A stretch of 44,519 nt of DNA from Acidimicrobiia bacterium (lineage in GTDB: Bacteria; Actinomycetota; Acidimicrobiia; Acidimicrobiales; Poriferisodalaceae): assembly GCA_022824805.1 (NCBI GenBank), contig JAJDZE010000150.1:1-44519 (forward strand), in the 5' to 3' direction. The notes beneath the pieces are model-generated. The model was not told where the DNA came from, ran no database searches, and saw only the letters and a program-made list of their open reading frames with translations. Shown here piece by piece: positions 23,351 to 37,601 of the stretch. Each line of letters opens with the position of its first letter. Position 1 is the stretch's first letter. The translations under genes and the position numbers were made by a program.

Positions 23351-25253
23351 GCCACCTGTAGAAGCACTAGTCACGGTCGGCGAGGTCATCGAGCGCATTC
23401 GCACAACCAGCCGTGACGAGTCCGAGAAGGGTCGGTGGTTCGAGGAACTCGTCAAGATCGTCTTCCTTGACAGTCCCGAGTACGAGATCGATGAGATCGA
23501 ACACTGGGCACGGTGGCGCGAACGTCAGCAACTGATTGGCCTCAGCGCCAAGGACACCGGCATCGATCTCGTCGCACGCCACCGCGACGGCAGCTGGGTC
23601 GCCATCCAATGCAAGTGCTACGCACCGAAGCGGCGGGTCGCCAAGTCTGACATCGACTCCTTTCTGAGCGCGTCGCAAGCCGTCGAGGCATCCGGCCAGC
23701 CGGTCTTCGCCATGCGGTGGGTCGTCACGACTTCTCCGTGGAGCGAGAACGCGCTCACCCAAGTCGACAGCCTCGGCGCCGCAGTCCGGCGGATCGACTT
23801 CCTGCGCCATGAATTCGAGAAGATCAGCGAGAAGCTGCAGGAACGACCAGTTCGCCAGCCCTGGCAGCGTCAGAAGGAGGCCATCGACAAGGTCGTCGAA
23901 GGCTTGTCGCACCACGACCGCGGTCGGATGATCATGGCCTGCGGCACAGGCAAGACCTTCACCTCGCTGCGCATCGCTGAAAGCGTGGTTCCGGACGGCG
24001 GGCGCATCCTCTTCTTGGCACCGAGCATCGCACTGGTTGCGCAGGCACGCCGCGAATGGCTGCTGCACACCACGAGGCCGCTCAGCTGCGTTGTCGTCTG
24101 CTCCGACGACTCGGCTGGCGGACGCTCCGAGAGCGCCACGGAGATGCGCGTTTCTGAGCTGGAGTGCCCGGTGACGACGTTGTCCCAGCGGCTGGGCGAA
24201 ATGCTGAACCCCTCTTTCAACACCGATGAGACCCGCGTGGTGTTCTGCACCTATCAGTCGCTGCATCGGGTCCGTGACGCACAGTCCTCGCACGGCGCTG
24301 GTGTCTTCGATCTGATCGTTTGCGACGAGGCGCATCGCACGACAGGTGTCGTCTCAGACCAATCCGGCATCAGCCGCGACAGCGGCTTCCAGATGGTCCA
24401 CGACAACGAGCGCCTGCGGGGACGCAAGCGGCTCTACATGACGGCCACGCCCCGCATCTACACCGCGGCATCCAAGAAATCGCTGTCGGGCCGCGGCATC
24501 GAGACCGTCGACATGGATGACGGCGACACGTACGGCCCGGAGCTGGAACGGCTCTCGTTCAAGGAGGCGGTCGAGCAGAACATGCTCACCGACTACCGCG
24601 TCATCGTCCTGGGCATTCACGCCGGCGCAGTCACGGCCGGTGTGCGCAAGCGGCTCCTTGCCTTGGGCGATGAATCGACCGGCTCGCAGGCACAGCAAGG
24701 CAGCGCCAAGCCGCTGGTGGTGAGCAACGAAGATCTCCAGCGTCTGCTCGGCACCTCGCTCGCCATCAACGGCATGGCCGAAGGTGATGACCTCGAAGTG
24801 CCGCAGCGGCTGGATCGCACCATCGCATTTGCCAACTCCATCGCTCGGTCCAAGTTCTACGCGCAAGGGCTTCAAGATCCACAGTTGCGCAGCCTGATCA
24901 CCCGCCGGCGGCGGCGCCGCGGTGACGAAGCAGGAGCGGTGCCCGTCGAAGCGAGTCACCTCGACGGCACAGCACCTGCGTTCGAGCGCAACGAGGAATT
25001 GCGCAAGCTCGCACGTGCGAGCACAGACCGGTGCGCACGGGTGATCTGCAACGCGAAGCTGCTTACCGAAGGAGTGGATGTGCCGTCGCTCGATGCCGTC
25101 GTGTTCATGGAGCCGCGGGACAGCCACGTCGACATCGTCCAGGCCGTCGGACGGGTCATGCGCCGCGCCGACGGCAAGCGCCTCGGCTACATCGTCATCC
25201 CCGTGCCTGTGCTGCCCGGGGAAGACATCGCCGCTGCCCTAGGAGACCGCTGA
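23301..25253 (+). CDS. Nuclease-helicase part of the type ISP enzyme
   Basis: The open frame (no start codon of its own before ATG 23712) encodes an Mrr-like PD-(D/E)xK nuclease ('GRWFEELVKIVFLD', Asp in 'DTGIDLVAR', then 'WVAIQCKCYAP' with the Q-x-K strand). An SF2 translocase follows: Walker A 'MACGTGKTFTSLR', Walker B 'LIVCDEAHRTTG', 'MTATPRIYT' and motif VI 'QAVGRVMRRADGK'. Translocases of this type pump DNA until two enzymes collide and cut. The frame ends at a TGA supplied by the inserted element (25251-25253). Starting at 23712, a helicase without nuclease could be made, but no ribosome-binding site is evident. Confidence 0.8.
   Translation, partial: VCRSPIPPPPESDVTSEPPVEALVTVGEVIERIRTTSRDESEKGRWFEELVKIVFLDSPEYEIDEIEHWARWRERQQLIGLSAKDTGIDLVARHRDGSWVAIQCKCYAPKRRVAKSDIDSFLSASQAVEASGQPVFAMRWVVTTSPWSENALTQVDSLGAAVRRIDFLRHEFEKISEKLQERPVRQPWQRQKEAIDKVVEGLSHHDRGRMIMACGTGKTFTSLRIAESVVPDGGRILFLAPSIALVAQARREWLLHTTRPLSCVVVCSDDSAGGRSESATEMRVSELECPVTTLSQRLGEMLNPSFNTDETRVVFCTYQSLHRVRDAQSSHGAGVFDLIVCDEAHRTTGVVSDQSGISRDSGFQMVHDNERLRGRKRLYMTATPRIYTAASKKSLSGRGIETVDMDDGDTYGPELERLSFKEAVEQNMLTDYRVIVLGIHAGAVTAGVRKRLLALGDESTGSQAQQGSAKPLVVSNEDLQRLLGTSLAINGMAEGDDLEVPQRLDRTIAFANSIARSKFYAQGLQDPQLRSLITRRRRRRGDEAGAVPVEASHLDGTAPAFERNEELRKLARASTDRCARVICNAKLLTEGVDVPSLDAVVFMEPRDSHVDIVQAVGRVMRRADGKRLGYIVIPVPVLPGEDIAAALGDR
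23319..23330. repeat. Homopolymeric tract of 12 C
   Basis: Twelve consecutive C lie within the coding region of the restriction gene. Eleven (or 8 or 14) would join the N-terminal frame to the nuclease frame; twelve does not. Such tracts change length by slipped-strand mispairing, and they are also prone to sequencing error. Confidence 0.9.
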
Positions 25254-25342
25254 GCAATTGCCGGATCTTCGTCTTCGGCCAGGTAAAACCGCAGGTCAGA
25301 AGCTTGCGGCAGTCGCCGAAATCGGATAAATCAGCAGTCTCC
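25242..25342. mobile_element. 101-bp MITE (TA-flanked, Tc1/IS630-like) inside the restriction gene
   Basis: The segment has terminal inverted repeats GGAGACCGCTGA (25242-25253) and TCAGCAGTCTCC (25331-25342), 11 of 12 matching, and is flanked by TA at 25240-25241 and 25343-25344, the target duplication of IS630/Tc1-mariner elements. It has no coding capacity. Deleting the element plus one TA (103 bp) restores one frame reading 'GEDIAAALEEGGSGYEAVG' across the junction, which is how the helicase and methyltransferase parts should join. Mobility would need a transposase in trans. An IS630-type transposase lies at the left edge, but its visible terminus is only weakly similar. Confidence 0.8.
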
Positions 25343-27525
25343 TAGAGGAGGGCGGCAGCGGATACGAAGCCGTCGGGCAGGTGCTTCGGGCGTTGCAAGC
25401 CCACGACGGCCGGCTGGCCGAGTCACCCGTCAGATTCGTCACGATCGGCGAGGTCAAGCCAGTACCCCAGTCGAAGGGCGACGCTGACGGCAGTGATGGA
25501 TTCGAAAGCGACGTCACCCAATTGGAATTCGACCTCCGAGGCGCCGGGGATTCGATCTTTGCTCAGGTCGTCGCCGCATCCGGTTTGGGCACCGCTGGCA
25601 AGCTCGTCGCTGACGAATTGGGAGCCACGGTCAGCTTCGCCGGTGCGCGGTTCAGCGACGGCGATCTCGCCGAACCCTTGGCGGCGGCGCTCGGCAGCCT
25701 CGCCGTCACTGACGCCAACAAGGCCGACATCTGCAAGGTTGCATCGCTCGTGCTCATCAACGCCTGCCTGCTGCACCGCCGGCTGCGCGAGGTGGCTCGG
25801 TTCGGCGACGTCGCGGACCTCGCACGAGTCTCAGGCGCCGAGGACCCCGCCGCGGTGCTGACCACTGCTTGGCAGCGCATCCTCGAACACGACTACGAGC
25901 CAGTGTTTGCGCCTGCCCTCAGCGTGCTGGCAGCGTTGCCGCAGCGGCCCTTTGCGGCAGGCGCGTTGCGGAGCCTCGCAGAATGCGCGAACCGCACAGC
26001 CGATTCGCTCAGCGAGATGGGCTACGACCACGCCGGCCCGCTGTATCACCGCATCCTGCCCAATGCAGAGTCATACGGCGCCTTCTACACCAAGAATCTG
26101 TCGGCACTCATGCTGGCACGGCTGGCAATCGATGAGAGCTTCGCCGACTGGACGGATCCTGAGCACATAGCCCGACTGCGGGTCATGGACCCTGCCTGCG
26201 GCACCGGGACGCTCCTCATGGCAGCGCTACGAGTGCTCAAGCAACGCGTCCACGAGGCTGGCCACCACTCGGACGGTGATGATGCCGACCCCGACGGTGC
26301 CGAGCTGCACAAGACCATCGTCGAGAACGTGCTTCACGGGCTCGACATCAACCTGCCGGCCATCCAGTTCGCTGCATCGAACTTCACCTTGGGAGCTCCG
26401 ACTGTCGACTACCGCAAGATGAACCTGTTCACGCTCAAGCACGGCCCGCAGCCTGACGGAACGATGAAGGCCGGAACGCTTGAGGTGCTCGGCTTCGCCG
26501 ATTCCGAGGCGTCGCTGCGCAACCTGGTGCGGCACACCAACGCAGGGAGCGTGGGTACCCAGCTGACCGATTCCGGCGCGGAGTTCCCGATACGGGACAT
26601 CGATCTCGTGATCATGAACCCGCCGTTCACGAACAACGTCAAGAAGAACTCGCAGTACTCACCCGCTCAGAAGAAGGCCATGCAGCAGCACGAACTTGGG
26701 CTCCGCGATGTGTTGCTGCAGTCCGATCCGGCTGCCGGTGCCATCATCGACGCCAACAGCATCCGCACCTATTTCACACCGATCGTGGAGCGAATGTCGG
26801 CGTCTCGCGGCGCAACCGTCGCTTCCGTGGTCCCCACGACCGCATGCACCGCTTCGTCAGGGCAGAAGGAGCGTCGCTTTCTCGCAGAACGGCTCTACAT
26901 CGAGACGGTCGTCACATCACACGACCCGAAGAACATCAATTTCTCCGAGAACACCGGCATTCACGAGTGTCTGCTCGTCACCCGGCGTCGAGATGATTGG
27001 CCAACGTCCCCCGCGGACGACCCGCCGACCCGATTCGTGTCGCTTCGCAAGATGCCATCGAGCCCCGAAGAGGCCCTCGCTGCGGCAGATGCGATTGCGA
27101 ACGGCGATCCTGGCGAGTGGGGCAATGTCACGCTGTGGCCGGCCGAGCGCGTGCGCGAGGGCGATTGGACACCGGTTCAGTGGTTCGACGGCGAACTGGC
27201 GGGTCTCGCATTGTCACTGGAGACCGGCGACCTCGCATCGTCCGGTGTCGGCGATCTTTTCCGGGGGGGTGCGGACCTTCAGGCCAAGCAATCAGAGGCG
27301 CCTTCGTCCCTTCCGCGCACACCAACGACTCGAATCAGCCGACTACCGACGAACAGTCGGACCTGGGGGTCAGCGAATACAGGACGCCTTCCAGAAGCGA
27401 GTTCTGCAATGACTCGGTCAGGGCATCTGTCACAGAATCGACTCGAGCGAGTCTCCCAAAGACGGAACATCGGCCCATCGGGTCGTCGCATTCAAGACGG
27501 CTTCAAGCCAGCGGTTCAGCCATGA
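25330..27525 (+). CDS. N6-adenine methyltransferase part of the type ISP enzyme
   Basis: The frame is open from inside the right end of the inserted element; a GTG at 25381 is the first possible start. After the linker helices ('GYEAVGQVLRALQAHDGRL'), a gamma-class N6-adenine methyltransferase follows. The SAM-binding motif I is 'VMDPACGTGTLLMAAL', the catalytic motif IV is 'IDLVIMNPPFTNN' and the acidic loop lies between. It modifies the host strand so that the nuclease ignores it. From about 27262 the frame leaves homology at a run of seven G; the remaining codons to the TGA at 27523 are out of frame apart from a late 'GPSGRRIQDGF'. Confidence 0.75.
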   Translation: MSSLLEEGGSGYEAVGQVLRALQAHDGRLAESPVRFVTIGEVKPVPQSKGDADGSDGFESDVTQLEFDLRGAGDSIFAQVVAASGLGTAGKLVADELGATVSFAGARFSDGDLAEPLAAALGSLAVTDANKADICKVASLVLINACLLHRRLREVARFGDVADLARVSGAEDPAAVLTTAWQRILEHDYEPVFAPALSVLAALPQRPFAAGALRSLAECANRTADSLSEMGYDHAGPLYHRILPNAESYGAFYTKNLSALMLARLAIDESFADWTDPEHIARLRVMDPACGTGTLLMAALRVLKQRVHEAGHHSDGDDADPDGAELHKTIVENVLHGLDINLPAIQFAASNFTLGAPTVDYRKMNLFTLKHGPQPDGTMKAGTLEVLGFADSEASLRNLVRHTNAGSVGTQLTDSGAEFPIRDIDLVIMNPPFTNNVKKNSQYSPAQKKAMQQHELGLRDVLLQSDPAAGAIIDANSIRTYFTPIVERMSASRGATVASVVPTTACTASSGQKERRFLAERLYIETVVTSHDPKNINFSENTGIHECLLVTRRRDDWPTSPADDPPTRFVSLRKMPSSPEEALAAADAIANGDPGEWGNVTLWPAERVREGDWTPVQWFDGELAGLALSLETGDLASSGVGDLFRGGADLQAKQSEAPSSLPRTPTTRISRLPTNSRTWGSANTGRLPEASSAMTRSGHLSQNRLERVSQRRNIGPSGRRIQDGFKPAVQP
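27264..27523 (+). repeat. Three out-of-frame copies of a 'GPxGxxIxxxF' segment in the decayed recognition region
   Basis: Related segments begin at 27273 ('GPSGQAIRGAF', frame 3), 27359 ('GPGGQRIQDAF', frame 2) and 27472 ('GPSGRRIQDGF', frame 1), 86 and 113 bases apart. Each is in a different frame, so no single reading gives all three. Only one such segment is expected ahead of the recognition domain. Internal duplication plus indels is the likely history. Confidence 0.55.
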
Positions 27526-27531
27526 GCTACC

Positions 27532-28118
27532 ACGCCTTCTGGTCGGCGTCCGCGAAGCTCCGTCGCACCATGCGTGCCTCACCGGAGCAGCCGATCGAAC
27601 CTCGGCCCGGCAAAGAACAGCTGGCGGCGCGCTACTGGGCCCAGCGCAGCAAGCTTCTCGTGTCCAGTCGGCACCGAACGACCAATGCACTGCTGACCGC
27701 TGTGTACAGCGAGACGCCAGCGGTTGGATCGGCGTGGGTCCCAGTTGCCGTCAGGGAAGACGACGAAGCAAAGTCGCTTTGTGCTTGGTGGAACAGCACG
27801 CCTGTCAGATTGATGCTCTTCAATCGGCGATCAAAGACACTCGACTATCCGTCGTGGTCGTTGGATCAGCTGAGAAGCGTCCGTGTGCCTTCGCCCGTCA
27901 ACCCTGGTTGGGGTGGCTTGCTGGCGGCCTACGAGGAGGCCTGCGACATTGAACTTCTGCCGCTGCGGGACGGCGAGCAATGTGAGGGGAGGCGCATCAT
28001 CGACCGCGCTGCTGCACAGGTCCTCGGCATTCCCGAAGCCACGATCGCTGACTGGCGCCGGCGGCTCGCGTGCGAACCCACCATCTCCAATCGCCCCGCC
28101 GGCGTGAAAGGCGCATGA
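27532..28118 (+). CDS. C-terminal (target-recognition) part of the type ISP enzyme
   Basis: In a frame different from the methyltransferase, codons from about 27525 encode 'SYHAFWSASAKLRRTMRASPE', 'KEQLAARYWAQRSKLLVSS', 'AVYSETPAVGSAWVPV' and 'LCAWWNSTPVRLMLF', the usual C-terminal recognition domain of these enzymes. A downstream helix-turn-helix-like end ('AAAQVLGIPEATIADWRRRLA') follows. The stop is at 28116-28118. The domain looks intact but cannot be joined to the methyltransferase without a frameshift at about 27515-27530. Confidence 0.65.
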
Positions 28119-28283: not shown

Positions 28284-28568
28284 GCTGAGCAAGGACCTCG
28301 GCCGCGAACTTGCAGGTCAGAGGATCGGCTAGCGAGTCAGCGGTCACAGCATTTCCGCAGATCAGCGCCTATCCGCTCATCCTCTATGTCGCGAGGATCG
28401 GATGTCGCTAGCCGGCCACTTGGGCTGCGCGGCGTTACAGCAGCGACATCGACGGGATCAACGAAGCCTGATCGTGCCAACAGCGCACCCGCACGCCGAC
28501 CACAACGCCAAGGAATGCTCGGGACCCGATCGCCTACCGCGGGATCGCGTTGTGTCACACCCCTCGCA

Positions 28569-28574
28569 TACGGT
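28569..28574 (+). promoter_or_regulatory. -10 box (TACGGT) for the HNH gene
   Basis: TACGGT fits TANNNT and ends exactly 6 bases before ATG 28581, which has no ribosome-binding site. This suggests a leaderless transcript. The same hexamer and spacing precede the gene starting at 37601. Confidence 0.4.
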
Positions 28575-28580
28575 TGTTCT

Positions 28581-29990
28581 ATGTCGAAAAACGGCTTCGA
28601 GGCCAGCCAGCGGGAGCGCACCGCACACGCCGGGGCTGTTCCGCAGGCAGCCAATCTGGCGGGCAGCGCCGAGGCCGGATCGGAGCGCGAGAACTCACCT
28701 GTGCGAGCGACACTCCCCGCCAACAACATGACCGACAGCGCCGAGACCCGCCCTGGGGCTAACCGTAAGTCGGATGGTGTTTGTGTAGACGCAGTGGACG
28801 TGGTCGGGCTTTGCGGGCCGGGTCTGCGAGCTCGTCTGGGTGAGATCGCTCGGGCCGAGTCGCGGCTGGCTGTGATGAAAGCCGACGCGCTGGGGGAGAT
28901 CGCCCGCCGCAGCGGCGACGGCGCTGCTGCGCATGCCGCGGTGAATGAGATGGCGGTGTCGGGCCGTAAGGCACGCGGCGAGGTCCGCGAGGCCGTGCGA
29001 CTGGGCGAGCTGGACGCCACTCGGGCCGGGCTCGCCGCGGGCACGGTGCCGGTAGGCCACGCACAGCTGATCGCCCGCGCCACCGGCGACGCCCCGATCG
29101 ACGAGGCGATGCTGGCCACGCTGGCACCCCGGGAGGGCTATGACGAATTCCGCCGCACCGTCGCGCGCCATGTCGCCGAGGTATCCCGCAACGACGGCGC
29201 ATCAGTGCTCGAACGCCAGCGGCAGGCACGCACCGGCACGATCCGCACCCGCCACAGCGACGGCATGACTGTCGTGCACCTCGAAGTCGACCCCCTCACC
29301 GGCGCACGGCTCGGCACCGTGATCGCGGCTGCTGAGCGGCGGCTGTTCCGCAACGAGGAGCGTGCTGAGCGACGCACTCCCCCACAACGCACCGCAGACG
29401 CCATCACCGAACTCATGTTGGACCCCGATGCGAAACGTCCTGCGGGAGCGTCGCTGATCGTGGTCGCCGACTACGACATGGTGAACCGCGAGCTTGTCAA
29501 TGGCCGGCTCGCTGACGGCACGCCGATCCCGATCGGCGAGATCGCCAAGATCGCCGCCGACGCCCAACTGCTGCCCACCATCTTCGAGGCAGCCACCGGG
29601 GACCTGCGCATGGGACGCACCACCCGCACCGCCACCGATACACAGCGCGCAGCCCTCGCGCTGCGCGACAAGGGCTGCGTCGGCTGCGGCATTCCGCCCG
29701 AACGCTGCCAACACCACCACATCAAGTTCTGGCGACACCAAGGACCCACCGACTACTGGAACCTCGTCACCGTCTGCGCCGACTGCCACAACGACAAGAT
29801 CCACCAAGAAGGCTTCACCGTCGAATGGAACCCCGACCCCCACACCCTCGGCTTCGGACTCAAACCGCCAGATCAGTCGCCGAGCGGCCGACCACTGGCC
29901 GCACCGAGAGGCCAGCAAACAGGCCAGCCATCAGGCCGACCGAGTGACGGAGCCCACCGCCGCAACGGGCCTCGGGCGCCCCCGCGTTGA
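28581..29990 (+). CDS. DUF222 / HNH endonuclease signature protein
   Basis: This 469-residue protein has a variable Ala/Glu-rich N-terminus, then a DUF222 helical domain ('LGEIARAESRLAVMKADAL', 'VRLGELDATRAGLAAGTVP' and 'ASLIVVADYDMV'), and a C-terminal HNH domain. C366 and C369 ('GCVGCGIP'), 'CQHHHIKFW', 'NLVTVCADCHNDKIHQEGF' provide the zinc knuckle and the His-Asn-His residues. The tail is Pro/Gln/Arg-rich. Such proteins are a large multicopy family in actinobacteria, often near mobile DNA, with unproven roles. Start 28581 is chosen because upstream codons lack homology. Confidence 0.88.
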   Translation: MSKNGFEASQRERTAHAGAVPQAANLAGSAEAGSERENSPVRATLPANNMTDSAETRPGANRKSDGVCVDAVDVVGLCGPGLRARLGEIARAESRLAVMKADALGEIARRSGDGAAAHAAVNEMAVSGRKARGEVREAVRLGELDATRAGLAAGTVPVGHAQLIARATGDAPIDEAMLATLAPREGYDEFRRTVARHVAEVSRNDGASVLERQRQARTGTIRTRHSDGMTVVHLEVDPLTGARLGTVIAAAERRLFRNEERAERRTPPQRTADAITELMLDPDAKRPAGASLIVVADYDMVNRELVNGRLADGTPIPIGEIAKIAADAQLLPTIFEAATGDLRMGRTTRTATDTQRAALALRDKGCVGCGIPPERCQHHHIKFWRHQGPTDYWNLVTVCADCHNDKIHQEGFTVEWNPDPHTLGFGLKPPDQSPSGRPLAAPRGQQTGQPSGRPSDGAHRRNGPRAPPR

Positions 29991-30159: not shown

Positions 30160-30540
30160 TCACGCCAACAGGATGTCGATGTCGAGTCGTGCTGCGTCGG
30201 CAAGCGCCGCGATGTCGTGAGGGTCCGAGGTCACAATCTGGTCGCCGCTGCTGCACATCGCGACAAGAGCCGCATCGATGGCGTCAAACCTGCCGGCCAG
30301 CGCTTGCAAGACACCGGCCCGGCGTCCGAGGGTCTCGTCGAGAGGTACGACGATGGTGCCGAACAAGGCTCTCGCCAGCCGGAACTGGCGACCTGAGCCA
30401 CCACGCCAAACCTGCGCCACAACGCCACCATGAGTCAAAGGCGGGTAGCCGACCCGGTGAGCTTGCTCCATGCGCTCCCAGAGCGCCGACGCATCGCGTT
30501 CCAAGGCGATGAGCGCCCCAGCATCAAGCACCAAGCTCAC
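30160..30540 (-). CDS. PIN-domain toxin (VapC-like)
   Basis: This 126-residue PIN nuclease has Asp6 in 'LVLDAGALIALERD', the central pair in 'FDAIDAALVAM' and a final Asp in 'IVTSDPHDIAAL'. The usual second acidic residue (Glu of the '..E..R' helix) is Gln in 'THGGVVAQVWRGG', which I believe is the normal form in this actinobacterial subfamily. PIN toxins cleave tRNA or rRNA. Start GTG 30540 overlaps the end of the antitoxin gene by 17 bases. It converges on the HNH gene. Confidence 0.85.
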   Translation of the reverse strand: MSLVLDAGALIALERDASALWERMEQAHRVGYPPLTHGGVVAQVWRGGSGRQFRLARALFGTIVVPLDETLGRRAGVLQALAGRFDAIDAALVAMCSSGDQIVTSDPHDIAALADAARLDIDILLA

Positions 30541-30823
30541 GCTCGGCCTTCTGTCGCTGCCATTCCTTGCGGAATTGGTCTGCTTCTTCGCAATCAAGCC
30601 GACGGCGCTCTTCCAGCTCTTCGTCGGTGATCTTGCCGAACTCTGCTTCGTAATCTGCAATTGCCTCTCCGAGCGCCTTGAGGCGACGCCGGTGCTCGGT
30701 CTTGTCGGCAATCGCCTGGTTCACCCACGCGCTCACCGAAGAGGCGTCGCCATCGCTCACTGCTGCGCTGGCTTCATCGAGGAGGTCCGCATCGATCGTC
30801 AAGGTAATCCGACGCTTGCTCAT
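30524..30823 (-). CDS. Ribbon-helix-helix antitoxin (VapB-like)
   Basis: This 99-residue protein opens with 'KRRITLTIDADLLDEASAAV', a ribbon-helix-helix DNA-binding domain. A long charged helix follows ('ALGEAIADYEAEFGKITDEEL'), which would bind the PIN toxin, and an Arg/Glu-rich end. ATG 30823 is chosen because the homology begins there and a -10 box ends 6 bases before it. First gene of the pair; likely autorepressor. Confidence 0.8.
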   Translation of the reverse strand: MSKRRITLTIDADLLDEASAAVSDGDASSVSAWVNQAIADKTEHRRRLKALGEAIADYEAEFGKITDEELEERRRLDCEEADQFRKEWQRQKAERELGA

Positions 30824-30829
30824 ACCTTC

Positions 30830-30835
30830 ATCGTA
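30830..30835 (-). promoter_or_regulatory. -10 box (TACGAT) of the VapBC-like pair
   Basis: On the minus strand TACGAT ends 6 bases before ATG 30823, the same arrangement as in the MazEF-like pair at 14977. No clear -35 or ribosome-binding site is visible. It predicts a leaderless antitoxin message. Confidence 0.45.
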
Positions 30836-30977
30836 TTCTGGGAGCGCGACCGCACACGTGCAACGCATCGGCGTTCTGGGCCGACTTTCGGGTCCCCGTC
30901 ATGCCCAACGCCTACCCCGACGGCGTCGCGACCGATCGGAGGTGCGAGGCGCTGGCACACGCCAGTGACAGTGGCAG

Positions 30978-32147
30978 TCAGGCTGTGCTTGGCGCCCGGC
31001 GCAGGAGGCGCTTGAGGCGGTTGACGGCTGGCGTCCAGAACCATTCGGGCTCGGTGAAGCGTCGATGGTTCTCGCCGGGCAGCTCCATCGGGTCGTAGTA
31101 GTTCTTGTCGGTCTTCTTGCGCAGGTACGCCGATTTCTTCAGCACCTGCAGGTACGCGTAGAGGGTGCCCTTGTGCGTCCAGCCTTGGCGGTGGTAGTTC
31201 CAGTTGTCGGGCGCGAGACGCTGCGCAGCTTCGAAGTGCCGAAGCGCACGCTCGCTGTCACCGGCCGATTCGAAATGCAGTGCGAGCTTGAACGTGGGCT
31301 CGGCCAGCAGCGTTTCGTCGTCGACGGGCTTGAGATGCGCCGCCAGCTCTTCGGCAGACCAGACGAACTCGCTCTCGGGCCCTCGCTCGATCCAGTCCCG
31401 AGTCGCATGGGCGAAGGCGTCGTTGCCGAGGCGGACCTTGCCGAGCCCGAACTTGATCGTGGTCTCATCGGGGAAGACGCCCTCGTTGCTGCGGACTATG
31501 CGTCCATCCTCGTCGATCCACGCACCAGAGGGCACGTTGACCCAGCCGAACAGCGAGCTGATCCGATGCGTCGGGTCGACAATGCACCGAAACGTCGGCT
31601 TGGCCTTGTCAAACCACTTGCCCGCCGCAGCCTCGCCTTGGGAGTCCTCTGCAACGCTGATCAGCTCGAACCGGTCTGGCCCGATCGATTCGTACAGCTC
31701 CTGCCACACGGGCAGGTTCACCCGGCAGCCTCACCACGACGCCCAGGTGAACAACACCACCTTGTGGCCCCGCAGGTCGGACAGTCGCACTGTGTCGCCG
31801 TTGCGGTCGGTCATCTCGAAGTCGGGAGCGAGCCCCGACTCCAGCCCTATCCGGCGCACTTCGGGCACCGAGCCGAGACTCCACACGTCGCCGTCGCGCA
31901 CGTGCTTCTGGCCGATCTTGTCGGCAAAGGCCGAGTAGCAGAACCACACCCGGTCATCGGCATCGGCGATCCACGCCTCTCGCTCGGGCTCGAACAGCGG
32001 CACGCAGATCTCGCCGAGACACACGCCCTCAGGCTTCAGCTGCCAGCCGGTGGCCTGCTCGAGCTGGTCCACCCGCACCCACAGGCTGTCGGTGTCATCA
32101 CTTCGCTGAGCGATGTCACTGCTGCTGTCACTCGTCAGGACGATCAC
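30978..32147 (-). CDS. Thioredoxin-like (ResA/TlpA-type) probable selenoprotein
   Basis: Two adjacent frames, separated only by a TGA at 31733-31731, together make a single 389-residue protein. Residues about 105-260 are a thioredoxin-fold redoxin domain ('GLAPDFEMTDRNGDTVRLSDLRG', 'VVLFTWASW-TGA-GCRVNLPVWQELYE', 'CIVDPTHRISSLFGWVNVPSG'). The TGA (codon 139) sits where the redox-active Cys should be, giving W-U-G-C-R, so selenocysteine is the natural reading. A fitting SECIS hairpin follows. The N-terminal 100 residues are a separate Cys-containing domain ('GVCLGEICVPLFEP'), and the C-terminus holds a TPR-like unit ('ALHFESAGDSERALRHFEAAQRLAP'). GTG 32147 follows AGAGGA; a GTG at 32189 is less likely. 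No signal peptide. A plain nonsense mutation remains possible. Confidence 0.8.
31700..31733 (-). promoter_or_regulatory. Sec-TGA codon and candidate bacterial SECIS hairpin
   Basis: After the TGA (31733-31731), the minus strand forms a perfect 6-bp stem CCTGCC (31716-31711) / GGCAGG (31705-31700) with the 5-base loop CGTGT. The first G of the loop is the 22nd base after the TGA. That meets the general bacterial SECIS rules as I know them: a short stem, a small apical loop with G in the first two positions, and a 16-37 base spacing. Confidence 0.65.
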
Positions 32148-32205
32148 GGTTGTCCTCTGCTCTCGTGCCCCTGTCTCAGCCGACGGCACCCCCGGGGGGG
32201 AGGAC

Positions 32206-33378
32206 CTAAGGAAGCGCTCCGCCTTCGGTCATGCCGAGCAGTATCTGACCGTACTGCTCGTAGACGACGGCCGACACCATCAGGTGCGACTGCACGGTGT
32301 AGATGTCGCGCAGGATGCGCTGCATCTCGCTGCCGTTCATCACCGCGCTCCCGCCGGTGAGGCGAAACAGCTCGCCCACGAGGTCGATCGCCTCGTCGGT
32401 GCACCACACCGCCGCCGCCTGGGCCTCGGTGACCAGCGCCGGGTCGGGCGGGCCCGCAGCGGCCGAGTCGAACATGCGCTCCATCGCATCGGCCATCGCC
32501 AGCGCACACGCGTTCATGCGAATCGTGCCCTGGCCGACGGTGCGCTGGAAGACCTGCCGGTCGGCCAGGCTGACACCCCCGACATATCCCCGCCGCTTTT
32601 CCATGGCGCTCTCGCTCGCCGTGCGCAATGCCAGCCGTCCGAGCGCATAGGCAAAGCTGCCGTGCTCGTTCACAACGAAGGCGGGCAGTCCCAGGCGCAT
32701 GAGCGCTCCGCCCTTCGGCGGCTCGCCTGAGAACACGTCCACCGCGAAGCTGTCGGGGACGAACACGTCGTCCAGCTCGTAGTCGCAGCTGCCCGTGCCG
32801 CGCATGCCGAGGGTGTGCCAGTTGTCGTGCACGATGACATCGCCGGTCGGCACCACCGCCCTGACGATCGGCGGACCGTCGCCTTCGCAGAACACCGGCA
32901 CCGTCACCCAATCGGCATGCTCGACGCCGCTGCCCCACGCCCACCGACCCGACACCCGGTAGCCGCCCTCGACGCGGCGGGCTGCACCACCGGGACGCAG
33001 CGACGCCGCCATGAACGGGAAGCCGCCGGCCAGGATGCTCTCGGCGGTCTCGTCTGCCAGCACCGACAGCGTCGCCCCGGTCGCCGAGGCGGTGATGAAC
33101 ATGCACCATGCCGCCGCAGGGTCGATCATCGTGACCGCCTCGATCACGTCCATCTGGGTGACCGGGTGCGCTTCGGCGCCGCCCAGAACCCTCGGCGACT
33201 TCAGCTTGAACAGGCCCGAGGATCGCAGCGCCTCTACCGAGGTCGGCGACAAACGCCGCAACTGCTCGGACTCGTCCCGGCCGGCTGCCAGCGCATCAGC
33301 GGCCGAGTCGACCGCTGCCAACAGGTAGGCCCGGTTGGCTTCCCGGTCCTGCGGGAACTCGTTCTCGTGAGCGCTCAC
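32206..33378 (-). CDS. Acyl-CoA-dehydrogenase-fold flavin monooxygenase (HsaA-like)
   Basis: This 390-residue protein has the acyl-CoA dehydrogenase fold: N-terminal helices 'LSPTSVEALRSSGLFKLKSP', beta-domain 'VSGRWAWGSGVEHADWVTVP' and 'WHTLGMRGTGSCDYELDDVFVP', C-terminal helices ending 'RILRDIYTVQSHLMVS'. The absence of the dehydrogenase catalytic Glu context and the 'W(A/S)(W/F)GSG' strand are typical of the group D two-component flavin hydroxylases such as HsaA, which hydroxylate phenols with FMNH2 from a reductase. GTG 33378 lies 7 bases after the extradiol-type gene. A sequence hydroxylase plus ring-cleaving dioxygenase is a standard aromatic catabolic pair. Confidence 0.85.
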   Translation of the reverse strand: MSAHENEFPQDREANRAYLLAAVDSAADALAAGRDESEQLRRLSPTSVEALRSSGLFKLKSPRVLGGAEAHPVTQMDVIEAVTMIDPAAAWCMFITASATGATLSVLADETAESILAGGFPFMAASLRPGGAARRVEGGYRVSGRWAWGSGVEHADWVTVPVFCEGDGPPIVRAVVPTGDVIVHDNWHTLGMRGTGSCDYELDDVFVPDSFAVDVFSGEPPKGGALMRLGLPAFVVNEHGSFAYALGRLALRTASESAMEKRRGYVGGVSLADRQVFQRTVGQGTIRMNACALAMADAMERMFDSAAAGPPDPALVTEAQAAAVWCTDEAIDLVGELFRLTGGSAVMNGSEMQRILRDIYTVQSHLMVSAVVYEQYGQILLGMTEGGALP

Positions 33379-34758: not shown

Positions 34759-36147
34759 TCAGCTCGCCGACGGGGGCGGCACGGCGTCGTCGGGCACCCA
34801 GTTGCCGTGAAAGCCGTAGGGCACGCGTTGGGGCAGCGGCACCCGGGCCACCGGTGAGCGGCTGAGGTCGCGGGCATCGAGAATGACCAGTTCGCTGCCG
34901 TCGACCGTCTCGTCGTAGACGTAGGACATCAGCCAGCCGTCGTCCTCGGCGCTGCCGTCGGGATCGGGCACGAACACGGCCTCGGCGCTGCCCCGGCCGG
35001 GGCCGTGGTCGTGGTACTCGGCCGTGCCGCTGTCGTAGTCGAACTTGTAGTTGGCCCCCGGAATGAGGCCGTCACCGACGCCGACCGTGTATCCGAACCG
35101 ATGCTTGCGGGCGGTCCGGTCGGCGCGGACCTGGGGGAACTCGTGGAACCGGTCGTCGACGCGCTCCTCGCTGGCCCGGCGGCTCACCGGGTCGATGGTC
35201 CAGCGGTCGAGCGTGGGCCGGGAATCTCCGGCGGGTCCCAGCTTGTCGCGGTCGAACATCTTGTCGTAGCGGCACAGGTCGATCACCACGCGCCCGTCGT
35301 CGTCCTCGTAGGCATTCAGCGGGTGGAAGACGTAGCAGAGCCCGACATCGCACCAGATGATCTCGTCGGCCGTGCCTTGGCGGGGCAGCAGGCCGACCCG
35401 CGCGCCGTAGTCGGGGTCCCAACGGAACGGGAAGGTCGCCTCCTCGCTGAGCGCGAGATCCAGATCGAGCGTGACCGGCAGGTCGTAGATGACGGCGTAG
35501 TTCTCGGTGAGCGACATGTCGTGGATCATCGACATGCCCGGCAACGGCACATCGACCGTCTTGCGCACCCGACCGTCGGCGCCCACCACGACGTACTCGA
35601 CGTGATCGAACAGGTCCTGCCACGCATAGCAGACCGCGTGCAGCTCGCCGCTGCTGGGATCCAGTTTCGGATGTGCCGTGAATCCGGTCTTCAGCGTTCC
35701 GGAGAAGTCGTTGCGACGCACCGTCTCGAGCTCGTAGCCCATCTCCACCGGCACCACGCCCGCTTCGACGAGCGCCCACGTCGTGCCCGCAAAGCCCCAG
35801 ACGCTCGTATTCGCGGAGAAGTCGAGCGAGCCGACAGGCCCCGGCACCGCAGGTTCGCCCAACGCCTCCACCACGTCGTGGCCACGCACCCAGCGGTTGC
35901 GGTACCACTCTGCACGGCCGCCGCGCAGCCGCACCCCGTGCACCATGCCGGTGCCGACGAACCAGTGGCTCGTGGCCGGATCGGTGGGCACGATCGGGTT
36001 CGGGCCGTTGCGCAGGTAGCGGCCTTCGAGCGCTGCGGGTATCTCCCCGATCACGTCGAGGTCGAACGCCGTGACCTCGGTGGAAACCGGGGCGAAGTTG
36101 CCCTCGCTGTAGGTGTTGGTCTGCTGCGTCTGGGCAGTATCGGTCAT
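34759..36147 (-). CDS. Carotenoid oxygenase (RPE65/lignostilbene dioxygenase) family protein
   Basis: This 462-residue seven-bladed propeller is of the carotenoid cleavage oxygenase family. The four iron-binding His are all present: H159 ('FTAHPKLDP'), H209 ('MIHDMSLT'), H275 ('VFHPLNAYE') and H447 ('YGFHGNWV'). The N-terminal 'LEGRYLRNGPNP' and 'WFVGTGMVHGVRLRGGRAEWYRNRWV' are classic. Members cut a C=C bond of carotenoids or of lignin-derived stilbenes with O2. The aromatic catabolic neighbours favour a stilbene-type or other aryl-alkene substrate, but apocarotenoid cleavage is equally allowed by sequence. It starts 5 bases after the stop of the dimethylformamidase-like gene. Confidence 0.93.
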   Translation of the reverse strand: MTDTAQTQQTNTYSEGNFAPVSTEVTAFDLDVIGEIPAALEGRYLRNGPNPIVPTDPATSHWFVGTGMVHGVRLRGGRAEWYRNRWVRGHDVVEALGEPAVPGPVGSLDFSANTSVWGFAGTTWALVEAGVVPVEMGYELETVRRNDFSGTLKTGFTAHPKLDPSSGELHAVCYAWQDLFDHVEYVVVGADGRVRKTVDVPLPGMSMIHDMSLTENYAVIYDLPVTLDLDLALSEEATFPFRWDPDYGARVGLLPRQGTADEIIWCDVGLCYVFHPLNAYEDDDGRVVIDLCRYDKMFDRDKLGPAGDSRPTLDRWTIDPVSRRASEERVDDRFHEFPQVRADRTARKHRFGYTVGVGDGLIPGANYKFDYDSGTAEYHDHGPGRGSAEAVFVPDPDGSAEDDGWLMSYVYDETVDGSELVILDARDLSRSPVARVPLPQRVPYGFHGNWVPDDAVPPPSAS

Positions 36148-36152
36148 GCGGC

Positions 36153-37601
36153 TTAGATTCGCAGATCGACGTAGCGACCGATGACGTTACGAGTCACGGC
36201 CGACACGTCGTCGTGCTCGAGCCCATATGCCCAGTCGGTGCAGCCAGTGGTGAACACCTCGCCGCTGCCTCGCTCGAACCAGCCCATCACGGCCGCGCCG
36301 TACGCGAAGCGCTCCCGGTTCTCAGGCGTGTCGCCGCCGCCGAGGCGCTCGGTCACCCAGTTGAGCTCGCCGATGTAGCTGTCGGGCATCCCAGGCGGCG
36401 CTTCGGCGGTCTCCCACAGGTGGGCCGGCGCGGTGCCCAGCACCTCGAAGTTGGCCGGCGTTCCGCCGGTGGGCTTGGCGACCGGCAGCCCGTCCATCAG
36501 CTCGAGCTCGCAGCCGTCGCACTCGTAGCCCACCACGACCGGTTCGCCGCCCAGCACGTCGCCGGCGATCAGCCTCAAGCCGTCGAATGCCCAATGGCCC
36601 GGCCGCCAGATCGTGTACCCGCCGGATCCCTTCGGGGCACGGCGGCAGTGGGCGTAGCCACCGCGGGTGAACGAGACGCCGGTCATCTCGTTCTCCGGCC
36701 GGCCGGTGAGCGGGTCGCTCCACATGGTGGACACGGTGTGCTGCTCGTCGGTGCCCATGACCGGGTCGAGATCGAAGTCGAGCTTGTAGCCGATCACCCG
36801 GTCGTCGCCGCCGAACCGCACCTGCCAGAACGACGTGTTGCCCGAGAAGAACGCAGCCGCGCCCCCGCCGTCCACCCAGCCCTCGACGTGATCGCGCATC
36901 TCGGCCGACCAGTACTCGTCGTGGCCGACGCTGATGTACAGCCGTCGCCCGTCGAGCAGATCGGGCCGGGAGTGCAGGTCGAGACTGGTCGCGTAGTCGA
37001 GCGGCACGCCGTTGCGCTCGGCCCAGCTCACGAACAGCCGCTCCCAGTTCGCCCACCCCGCCGCAGCCGACCAGTAGGAGTAGTTGTCGAAGTACTCGTC
37101 GACCTCGCTGCGAGGCAGCTGGCCGAAACGGGCGACCCGGTAGCGGTGCGGGTCGGGCTTGTCCAGGAATCCCCGCGGCAGCGGCCGGTGCTGGGACGAT
37201 TCGTGCCCGCCGGTGTAGAAGCTGGGCCCGCCCCAGTCGTTGTAGGCAGCCCATGTCGAGGTGGACAGCACCAGCAGCGTCTCGGCGGGCTCGGCGGCAC
37301 GCACCACGAAGAACGCCTCGGCCACCTCGCCGTCGGTGCCGTGCAGGCGAACCAGGTAGAAGCCGGGCAGCCACGCCGGGTCGATGCTGAGCGACAGCGA
37401 AGGAGTCCAGCCGCAGCCCTCGGTGGCGCAGTCGTCGGGCACCGGCTGCTCGCCGACCGCCAGGTCCCGGGTCTCGACACGCTGCTCGGCGGCGCCGATC
37501 CGCAGCACCTCGACCCGGCACTGCCCGCCGTCGCCGCTGACCATCAGGTCGATGCTGTCCCCCGCCACGCCGCTCTGCGGCCAGCAGTACCCCGCGATCA
37601 T
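36153..37601 (-). CDS. N,N-dimethylformamidase large-subunit-like protein
   Basis: This 482-residue protein matches the C-terminal catalytic region of the dimethylformamidase beta subunit family: 'LLVLSTSTWAAYNDWGGPSFYTGG', 'YFDNYSYWSAAAGWANWERLFVSWAERNG', 'YISVGHDEYWSAEMRDHVEGWVDGGG' and 'AFFSGNTSFWQVRF'. In the characterised enzyme a mononuclear iron held by two Tyr and one Glu hydrolyses the amide; the Tyr/Glu-rich 'HDEYWS' motif fits. The N-terminal 100 residues form a beta domain with three Cys. No small subunit is seen. Many family members are uncharacterised, so the amide substrate is open. A TACGGT box lies 6 bases before ATG 37601. Confidence 0.85.
   Translation of the reverse strand: MIAGYCWPQSGVAGDSIDLMVSGDGGQCRVEVLRIGAAEQRVETRDLAVGEQPVPDDCATEGCGWTPSLSLSIDPAWLPGFYLVRLHGTDGEVAEAFFVVRAAEPAETLLVLSTSTWAAYNDWGGPSFYTGGHESSQHRPLPRGFLDKPDPHRYRVARFGQLPRSEVDEYFDNYSYWSAAAGWANWERLFVSWAERNGVPLDYATSLDLHSRPDLLDGRRLYISVGHDEYWSAEMRDHVEGWVDGGGAAAFFSGNTSFWQVRFGGDDRVIGYKLDFDLDPVMGTDEQHTVSTMWSDPLTGRPENEMTGVSFTRGGYAHCRRAPKGSGGYTIWRPGHWAFDGLRLIAGDVLGGEPVVVGYECDGCELELMDGLPVAKPTGGTPANFEVLGTAPAHLWETAEAPPGMPDSYIGELNWVTERLGGGDTPENRERFAYGAAVMGWFERGSGEVFTTGCTDWAYGLEHDDVSAVTRNVIGRYVDLRI

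What the first reader, a model, noticed from the sequence alone, without database searches (positions are those of the whole stretch)
30978..32147. Probable new selenoprotein: thioredoxin-like protein with TGA at its redox-active position
Seen: two frames in the same phase are split only by a TGA at 31733-31731, and the protein on both sides is one thioredoxin-fold domain (FTWASW before, GCRVNLPVWQ after). The TGA occupies the expected catalytic Cys of a WxxWCGC-type site. A perfect 6-bp stem with a 5-base loop (CGTGT) lies downstream, with its loop G 22 bases after the TGA, matching general bacterial SECIS geometry. Codon choice is normal on both sides and no frameshift is present. Inference: selenocysteine is inserted, giving a W-U-G-C-R redox motif, joined to a TPR-like tail and a novel N-terminal domain. 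I believe ResA-like selenoproteins of this kind have been annotated, but could not check.
Basis: partly seen in the sequence, partly recalled or inferred. Interest (0 to 1): 0.85.

Follow-up and report, generated by a model that had tools for sequence, protein, structure and literature searches.

The report
Selenocysteine-containing thioredoxin-like protein, Acidimicrobiia
This gene very probably reads one stop codon as the rare amino acid selenocysteine to build a redox enzyme of the thioredoxin kind; selenoproteins of this kind are already catalogued, so it is a solid new member rather than a surprise.

Summary
The frame 32147-30978 (minus) is interrupted by one TGA, at 31733-31731, inside W-A-S-W-U-G-C-R. 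In 93 homologous loci (window included) that position is TGA (78) or Cys (15), nothing else. The genome encodes tRNA-Sec, SelA, SelB and SelD. The downstream hairpin keeps its inner five pairs in 71 of 72 distinct TGA copies (28.6 expected from codon choice) and in 8 of 15 Cys copies. SelA was found in 54 of 56 genomes giving a TGA copy and in 1 of 12 giving a Cys copy.
It is not a new kind. NCBIfam NF041054, 'ResA-like WAxxUGC motif-containing protein', gives 278 bits against a cut-off of 300, and 'UGC-containing' Prx-like or TlpA-like selenoproteins have been in print since 2008. The window lies in a well-supported sister group.
Most likely role: a thiol-disulfide reductase or peroxidase with a shortened UxC motif, beside an N-terminal domain with a kept Cys pair (CxxxxC in 92 of 93). 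A redox relay between them is inference.

The parts
30978..32147 (-). selenoprotein gene, 389 residues with TGA codon 139 read as Sec; GTG start (an upstream GTG at 32189 is also possible), TGA stop
   Evidence: NF041054 278 bits
31731..31733 (-). Sec codon TGA (U139), aligned with the first Cys of the CxxC of ResA/DsbE-like proteins
   Evidence: alignment to 3kcm and 3gl3
31725..31727 (-). Cys141, partner in the UxC motif, invariant in 51 of 51 aligned
31700..31716 (-). SECIS-like hairpin: stem 31716-31711 with 31705-31700, loop 31710-31706, loop G at 31709 (+22 after the TGA)
   Evidence: against:
31863..32147 (-). N-terminal beta-rich domain (about residues 1-95); no significant Pfam or PDB match; weak lead to copper amine oxidase N-terminal domain
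32004..32021 (-). C43-x4-C48, Cys pair of the N-terminal domain (C43 at 32021-32019, C48 at 32006-32004)
31374..31853 (-). ResA/DsbE/TlpA-like thioredoxin domain (about residues 99-258), AhpC-TSA in Pfam
30981..31373 (-). C-terminal helical tail with a TPR-like hairpin (weak match, residues 286-315)

Best explanation
The gene encodes a selenoprotein. SelB with Sec-tRNA recognises the hairpin just after the UGA and inserts selenocysteine at codon 139 (inferred from conserved sequence and from the genome's machinery, not measured). The product has three parts: an N-terminal beta-rich domain with a conserved CxxxxC pair, a ResA/DsbE-like thioredoxin domain whose CxxC is shortened to UxC (U-G-C), and a TPR-like helical tail. 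Most likely Sec139 attacks a disulfide or peroxide, Cys141 resolves it, and the N-terminal Cys pair takes or passes on the electrons. The first two steps are inferred from fold and motif; the last rests only on the conservation of the Cys pair. It belongs beside the 'UGC-containing' Prx/TlpA-like selenoproteins, in a sister group of NF041054. The confidence given is for Sec decoding in a thioredoxin-fold redox protein; the relay alone I put at 0.3.
Against: No expression, selenium-labelling or enzyme data. The window's own hairpin is not in the minimum-energy fold and alone is not rare. In one TGA copy (L076) an inner pair is broken. Two TGA genomes, G292 and G188, show no SelA (drafts, 96% and 79% complete) and one Cys genome, G162, has one. 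Rows are related and were chosen by me from the table, with the stop-free rows taken on purpose, so the p values overstate independence. tRNA-Sec, SelB and SelD models also ring, mostly under cut-off, in all 14 control genomes; L002, over the tRNA-Sec cut-off at 47.6 bits, is a tRNA-Ser by ARAGORN. The distance between the N-terminal Cys pair and Sec139 was not measured: no coordinates were available.
Confidence: 0.93

Rival explanations
1. The TGA is a real stop: the gene is split or decayed, giving a short piece and a second protein started at an internal GTG (31721).
For: Under table 11 two separate frames are listed there; the hairpin alone is not rare; it is not in the minimum-energy fold.
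Against: TGA or Cys, nothing else, in 93 of 93 loci; coding constraint after the TGA against five relatives; complete sel machinery; stem pairing kept across the family.
Confidence: 0.02
2. UGA is decoded, but mostly as Cys or by near-cognate read-through, so the protein works as a thiol enzyme.
For: Cys forms of the same protein exist and look otherwise intact.
Against: No SelA was found in 11 of 12 genomes giving a Cys copy, and SelA was found in 54 of 56 giving a TGA copy; Cys copies keep the hairpin less often (8 of 15 against 71 of 72).
Confidence: 0.04
3. The enzyme is chiefly a peroxidase (peroxiredoxin-like), not a disulfide reductase.
Against: The nearest sequences and folds are thiol-disulfide oxidoreductases of ResA/DsbE type; the Sec aligns with the first Cys of their CxxC.
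Confidence: 0.35
4. The N-terminal CxxxxC binds a metal or cofactor, or is a structural disulfide, and does not exchange electrons with Sec139.
For: The pair is invariant whether the active site is Sec or Cys; the weak structural lead is to a domain of copper amine oxidase.
Against: Nothing direct. By eye (no predictor was run) the window protein shows no signal peptide, which makes a structural disulfide less likely.
Confidence: 0.45

Closest known systems
NCBIfam NF041054 WAxxUGC_long, ResA-like WAxxUGC motif-containing protein
   Same: Near full-length match (profile 6-322 of 354, spanning the N-terminal domain too), same WAxxUGC motif, TGA at the same place.
   Different: 278 bits, under the curated 300; another group on the tree (100/98 support for the window's 28 rows); longer N-terminus and another C-terminus.
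[quoted passage not shown]
   Same: AhpC-TSA/TlpA domain with a U-G-C motif and one Sec.
   Different: What I read gives names, domain and motif only; that these are the same family as NF041054 is my inference. The representative sequences were not compared.
ResA / DsbE (CcmG) / TlpA thiol-disulfide oxidoreductases
   Different: CxxC there, UxC here; additional N-terminal domain and C-terminal tail; Sec.
Copper amine oxidase N-terminal domain (E. coli enzyme 1spu/1oac; PF07833)
   Different: Not significant; a lead only.

Membership tests
Selenoprotein | In-frame UGA at a position that is Cys in homologues | tested here: met
   78 TGA, 15 Cys, 0 other of 93 loci
Selenoprotein | tRNA-Sec, SelA, SelB and SelD in the genome | tested here: met
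Selenoprotein | SECIS-like hairpin downstream of the UGA, kept in relatives | tested here: met
   against, for the window's own fold. Function of the hairpin not shown.
Selenoprotein | Selenium in the protein | not testable with these tools
   needs labelling or mass spectrometry
NCBIfam NF041054 WAxxUGC_long | Score at or above the curated cut-off of 300 bits | tested here: not met
   278 bits
NCBIfam NF041054 WAxxUGC_long | WAxxUGC motif | tested here: met
   WASWUGC
UGC-containing Prx/TlpA-like selenoproteins | pfam00578 (AhpC-TSA) domain | tested here: met
   61.1 bits, cut-off 26
UGC-containing Prx/TlpA-like selenoproteins | U-G-C motif | tested here: met
UGC-containing Prx/TlpA-like selenoproteins | Homology to the published representatives (MDE0950781.1, MBL6689828.1) | not tested
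   accessions seen; sequences not looked for
ResA (NF002854) | CxxC active site and curated score of 170 | tested here: not met
   UxC motif; 57.5 bits
Copper amine oxidase N-terminal domain (PF07833) | Significant sequence or structural match of the N-terminal domain | tested here: inconclusive

The most novel reading that the evidence does not exclude
A three-part seleno-oxidoreductase with a built-in relay: a so far unnamed N-terminal CxxxxC domain recharges the Sec-Cys (UxC) site inside one chain, with the TPR-like tail choosing the partner. The plan is kept from Acidimicrobiia to Planctomycetota through repeated Sec/Cys exchange.
Probability: 0.3. Interest if true: 0.5.

Novelty: new member of a known kind. 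Interest (0 to 1): 0.3.

Why it matters
A pipeline that reads TGA as a stop would give two broken pieces here, and the protein scores under the curated model meant to catch its kind, so members of this group may go unannotated (inference; no annotation was checked). The family, with at least six Sec/Cys changes forced by well-supported branches of one tree, is a natural comparison for asking why a lineage keeps or drops selenocysteine. The invariant N-terminal Cys pair gives a clear point to test.

Tried and rejected
Conserved gene neighbourhood: ORFs of the loci of the window's group were clustered. The HsaA-like flavin monooxygenase lies just upstream on the same strand in the window and in 6 of the 13 named loci L089-L101 (L089, L090, L092, L093, L094, L096) and in none of the 13 loci L049-L061. 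In L091, L099 and L055 too little upstream DNA is held to tell. Dropped as a functional clue beyond the nearest relatives.

Papers: searches for WAxxUGC and for selenoprotein with ResA-like and SECIS found no paper; NCBIfam with selenoprotein and selenocysteine listed one, not opened. Searches were listings that led to the papers cited. NF041054 is not named in the held main text of PMC13188914. PMC12013277 (deep-Sep), searched for ResA, UGC, TlpA and three taxon terms, holds none in its main text. PMC5029168, which the review cites for the UGC family, has no 'UGC' in its main text.

Full report
What is there. On the minus strand, 32147-30978 reads as one 389-residue protein if the TGA at 31733-31731 is decoded; the next TGA, 30980-30978, is the stop.

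Sampling. One search covered 296 genomes of the class with NF041054; by my hand count its table has 106 rows at E 1e-32 or better. Thirty came as loci (L019-L048), I fetched 40 more (L049-L088), and one is the window itself: 71 of 106. I took all rows of the window's own score range and, on purpose, the full rows without a stop. Three stop-free rows were left out (G031:C90, G238:C42, G212:C353) because their match begins after the Sec position; the other rows left out are all marked '1 TGA'. One search added 24 named loci (L089-L112). The Cys share is therefore not a natural frequency.

Is it selenocysteine? Four lines agree. (1) Of the window plus 94 loci (95 examined), 93 reach the position: 78 TGA, 15 Cys, no other residue; L107 and L112 are fragments. 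The 93 hold 87 distinct 60-base stretches, 72 TGA and 15 Cys. (2) The genome has a tRNA-Sec at 66.3 bits with anticodon TCA, SelA at 334 bits, SelB at 268 bits (cut-off 242) and SelD at 340 bits, the last with its own in-frame TGA in GAG-U-ACK. Controls: the tRNA-Sec, SelB and SelD models ring in 14 of 14 control genomes but over the cut-off in 5, 2 and 2; SelA rings in 2 of 14. A second tRNA-Sec hit over the cut-off (L002, 47.6 bits) is a tRNA-Ser by ARAGORN. (3) The hairpin: the inner five pairs stand in 71 of 72 TGA copies and 8 of 15 Cys copies; synonymous redrawing predicts 28.6 and 4.7. All six as Watson-Crick pairs: 63 of 72 and 3 of 15, predicted 14.9 and 1.5. L079 and L045 each show a pair re-formed by changes on both sides; L076 has an inner pair broken. 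(4) SelA is found in 54 of 56 genomes that gave a TGA copy and 1 of 12 that gave a Cys copy. Exceptions: G292 and G188 (TGA, no SelA found; drafts) and G162 (Cys, SelA found).

Against. For the window alone the hairpin is not remarkable: 38 of 1060 TGA triplets in the window have a hairpin of six or more pairs in the SECIS range, and with this protein and its codon usage all six pairs arise 39% of the time. The 50-nt minimum-energy fold uses other pairs. Related rows make the Fisher values too strong.

Sequencing error is made very unlikely by relatives: L089-L094, from records titled Acidimicrobiia or Acidimicrobiaceae MAGs, at 90-96% identity, keep the TGA. Differences to five of them fall mostly at third positions before and after the TGA, for example 35 of 50 before and 82 of 108 after in L094.

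Anatomy. The thioredoxin domain (about residues 99-258) matches AhpC-TSA and, by sequence and fold, ResA/DsbE-like proteins such as 3kcm, 3gl3, 4nmu and 1st9. HMMER's alignment puts Sec on the first Cys of the CxxC and C141 on the second, with one residue fewer between them; hence UxC. Residues 286-315 resemble a TPR, weakly in the window protein (17.9 bits, cut-off 27); TPR_2 is matched at E 1 or better by 38 of 51 members. The N-terminal domain is confidently modelled (mean pLDDT 92.7 for the whole protein, 88.4 for residues 1-101 alone) but has no significant match by sequence or fold; copper amine oxidase's N-terminal domain is a weak lead. Its Cys pair is present in 93 of 93 proteins, with spacing four in 92 and eight in L027. 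By eye the window protein has no signal peptide, while L103, L106 and L108 begin with a hydrophobic stretch; no predictor was run, and starts were chosen by rule.

Family and tree. In 83 proteins (10 of the 93 left out: three fragments L073, L078, L102 and seven copies or near-copies L089-L093, L098, L099) three groups stand out: one of 30 rows that are the best hits of NF041054, one of 28 with the window (25 Sec, 3 Cys; support 100/98) and one of 25. The root is at the midpoint, for drawing only. The window's group includes Planctomycetota, a Bryobacter record (Acidobacteriota) and a record titled Deltaproteobacteria. The label needs 9 changes on the tree; well-supported branches force 6.

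Comparison with the known. NCBIfam NF041054 is the closest family, and 51 of 51 proteins of the main alignment match it at E 0.001 or better. The window protein misses the cut-off (278 against 300), so I do not file it as an equivalog member. It meets the two features by which the literature names 'UGC-containing' Prx-like/TlpA-like selenoproteins, pfam00578 and U-G-C. These are listed from the Global Ocean Sampling data in 2008 (PMC2398784, passages), in 2022 (PMC9312934, passages) and in the 2026 review (PMC13188914: abstract, section 7 part 1, reference list part 2 and passages). That the published family and NF041054 are one is my inference; I did not compare with their representative sequences.

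Mechanism. Shown: conservation, the machinery genes, the pairing and the predicted fold. Inferred: Sec insertion itself, Sec139 attacking, Cys141 resolving, the N-terminal Cys pair relaying electrons, the tail binding a partner. No neighbour conserved beyond the nearest relatives points to a pathway.

Verdict: very probably a real selenoprotein; a new member of a known kind.

Noticed in passing
32206-33378 (-): Flavin-dependent monooxygenase of HsaA/acyl-CoA dehydrogenase type (141.5 bits to NF045629, under its cut-off of 450) directly upstream of the selenoprotein gene, 58 bases apart on the same strand; the order is kept only in the nearest relatives.
   Followed up: partly
34759-36147 (-): Carotenoid-cleavage dioxygenase of the RPE65 family; 533.8 bits to NF052295, under its cut-off of 675.
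   Followed up: no
36153-37601 (-): Protein with a DMFA2_C domain (N,N-dimethylformamidase beta subunit-like), 253.6 bits.
   Followed up: no
28386-29990 (+): DUF222 protein with a C-terminal HNH nuclease domain.
   Followed up: no
30160-30868 (-): Two small overlapping genes just downstream that look by eye like an antitoxin and a PIN-type toxin; no Pfam or NCBIfam match at the thresholds used.
   Followed up: partly
L018:1-33 (contig C36 of the window's genome): SelD itself has an in-frame TGA (GAG-U-ACK), so it is probably a selenoprotein too; the contig begins just before it.
   Followed up: partly
24003-28118 (+): Overlapping long frames that look like one DNA methyltransferase-type gene in pieces; judged by eye from the translations, not tested.
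   Followed up: no
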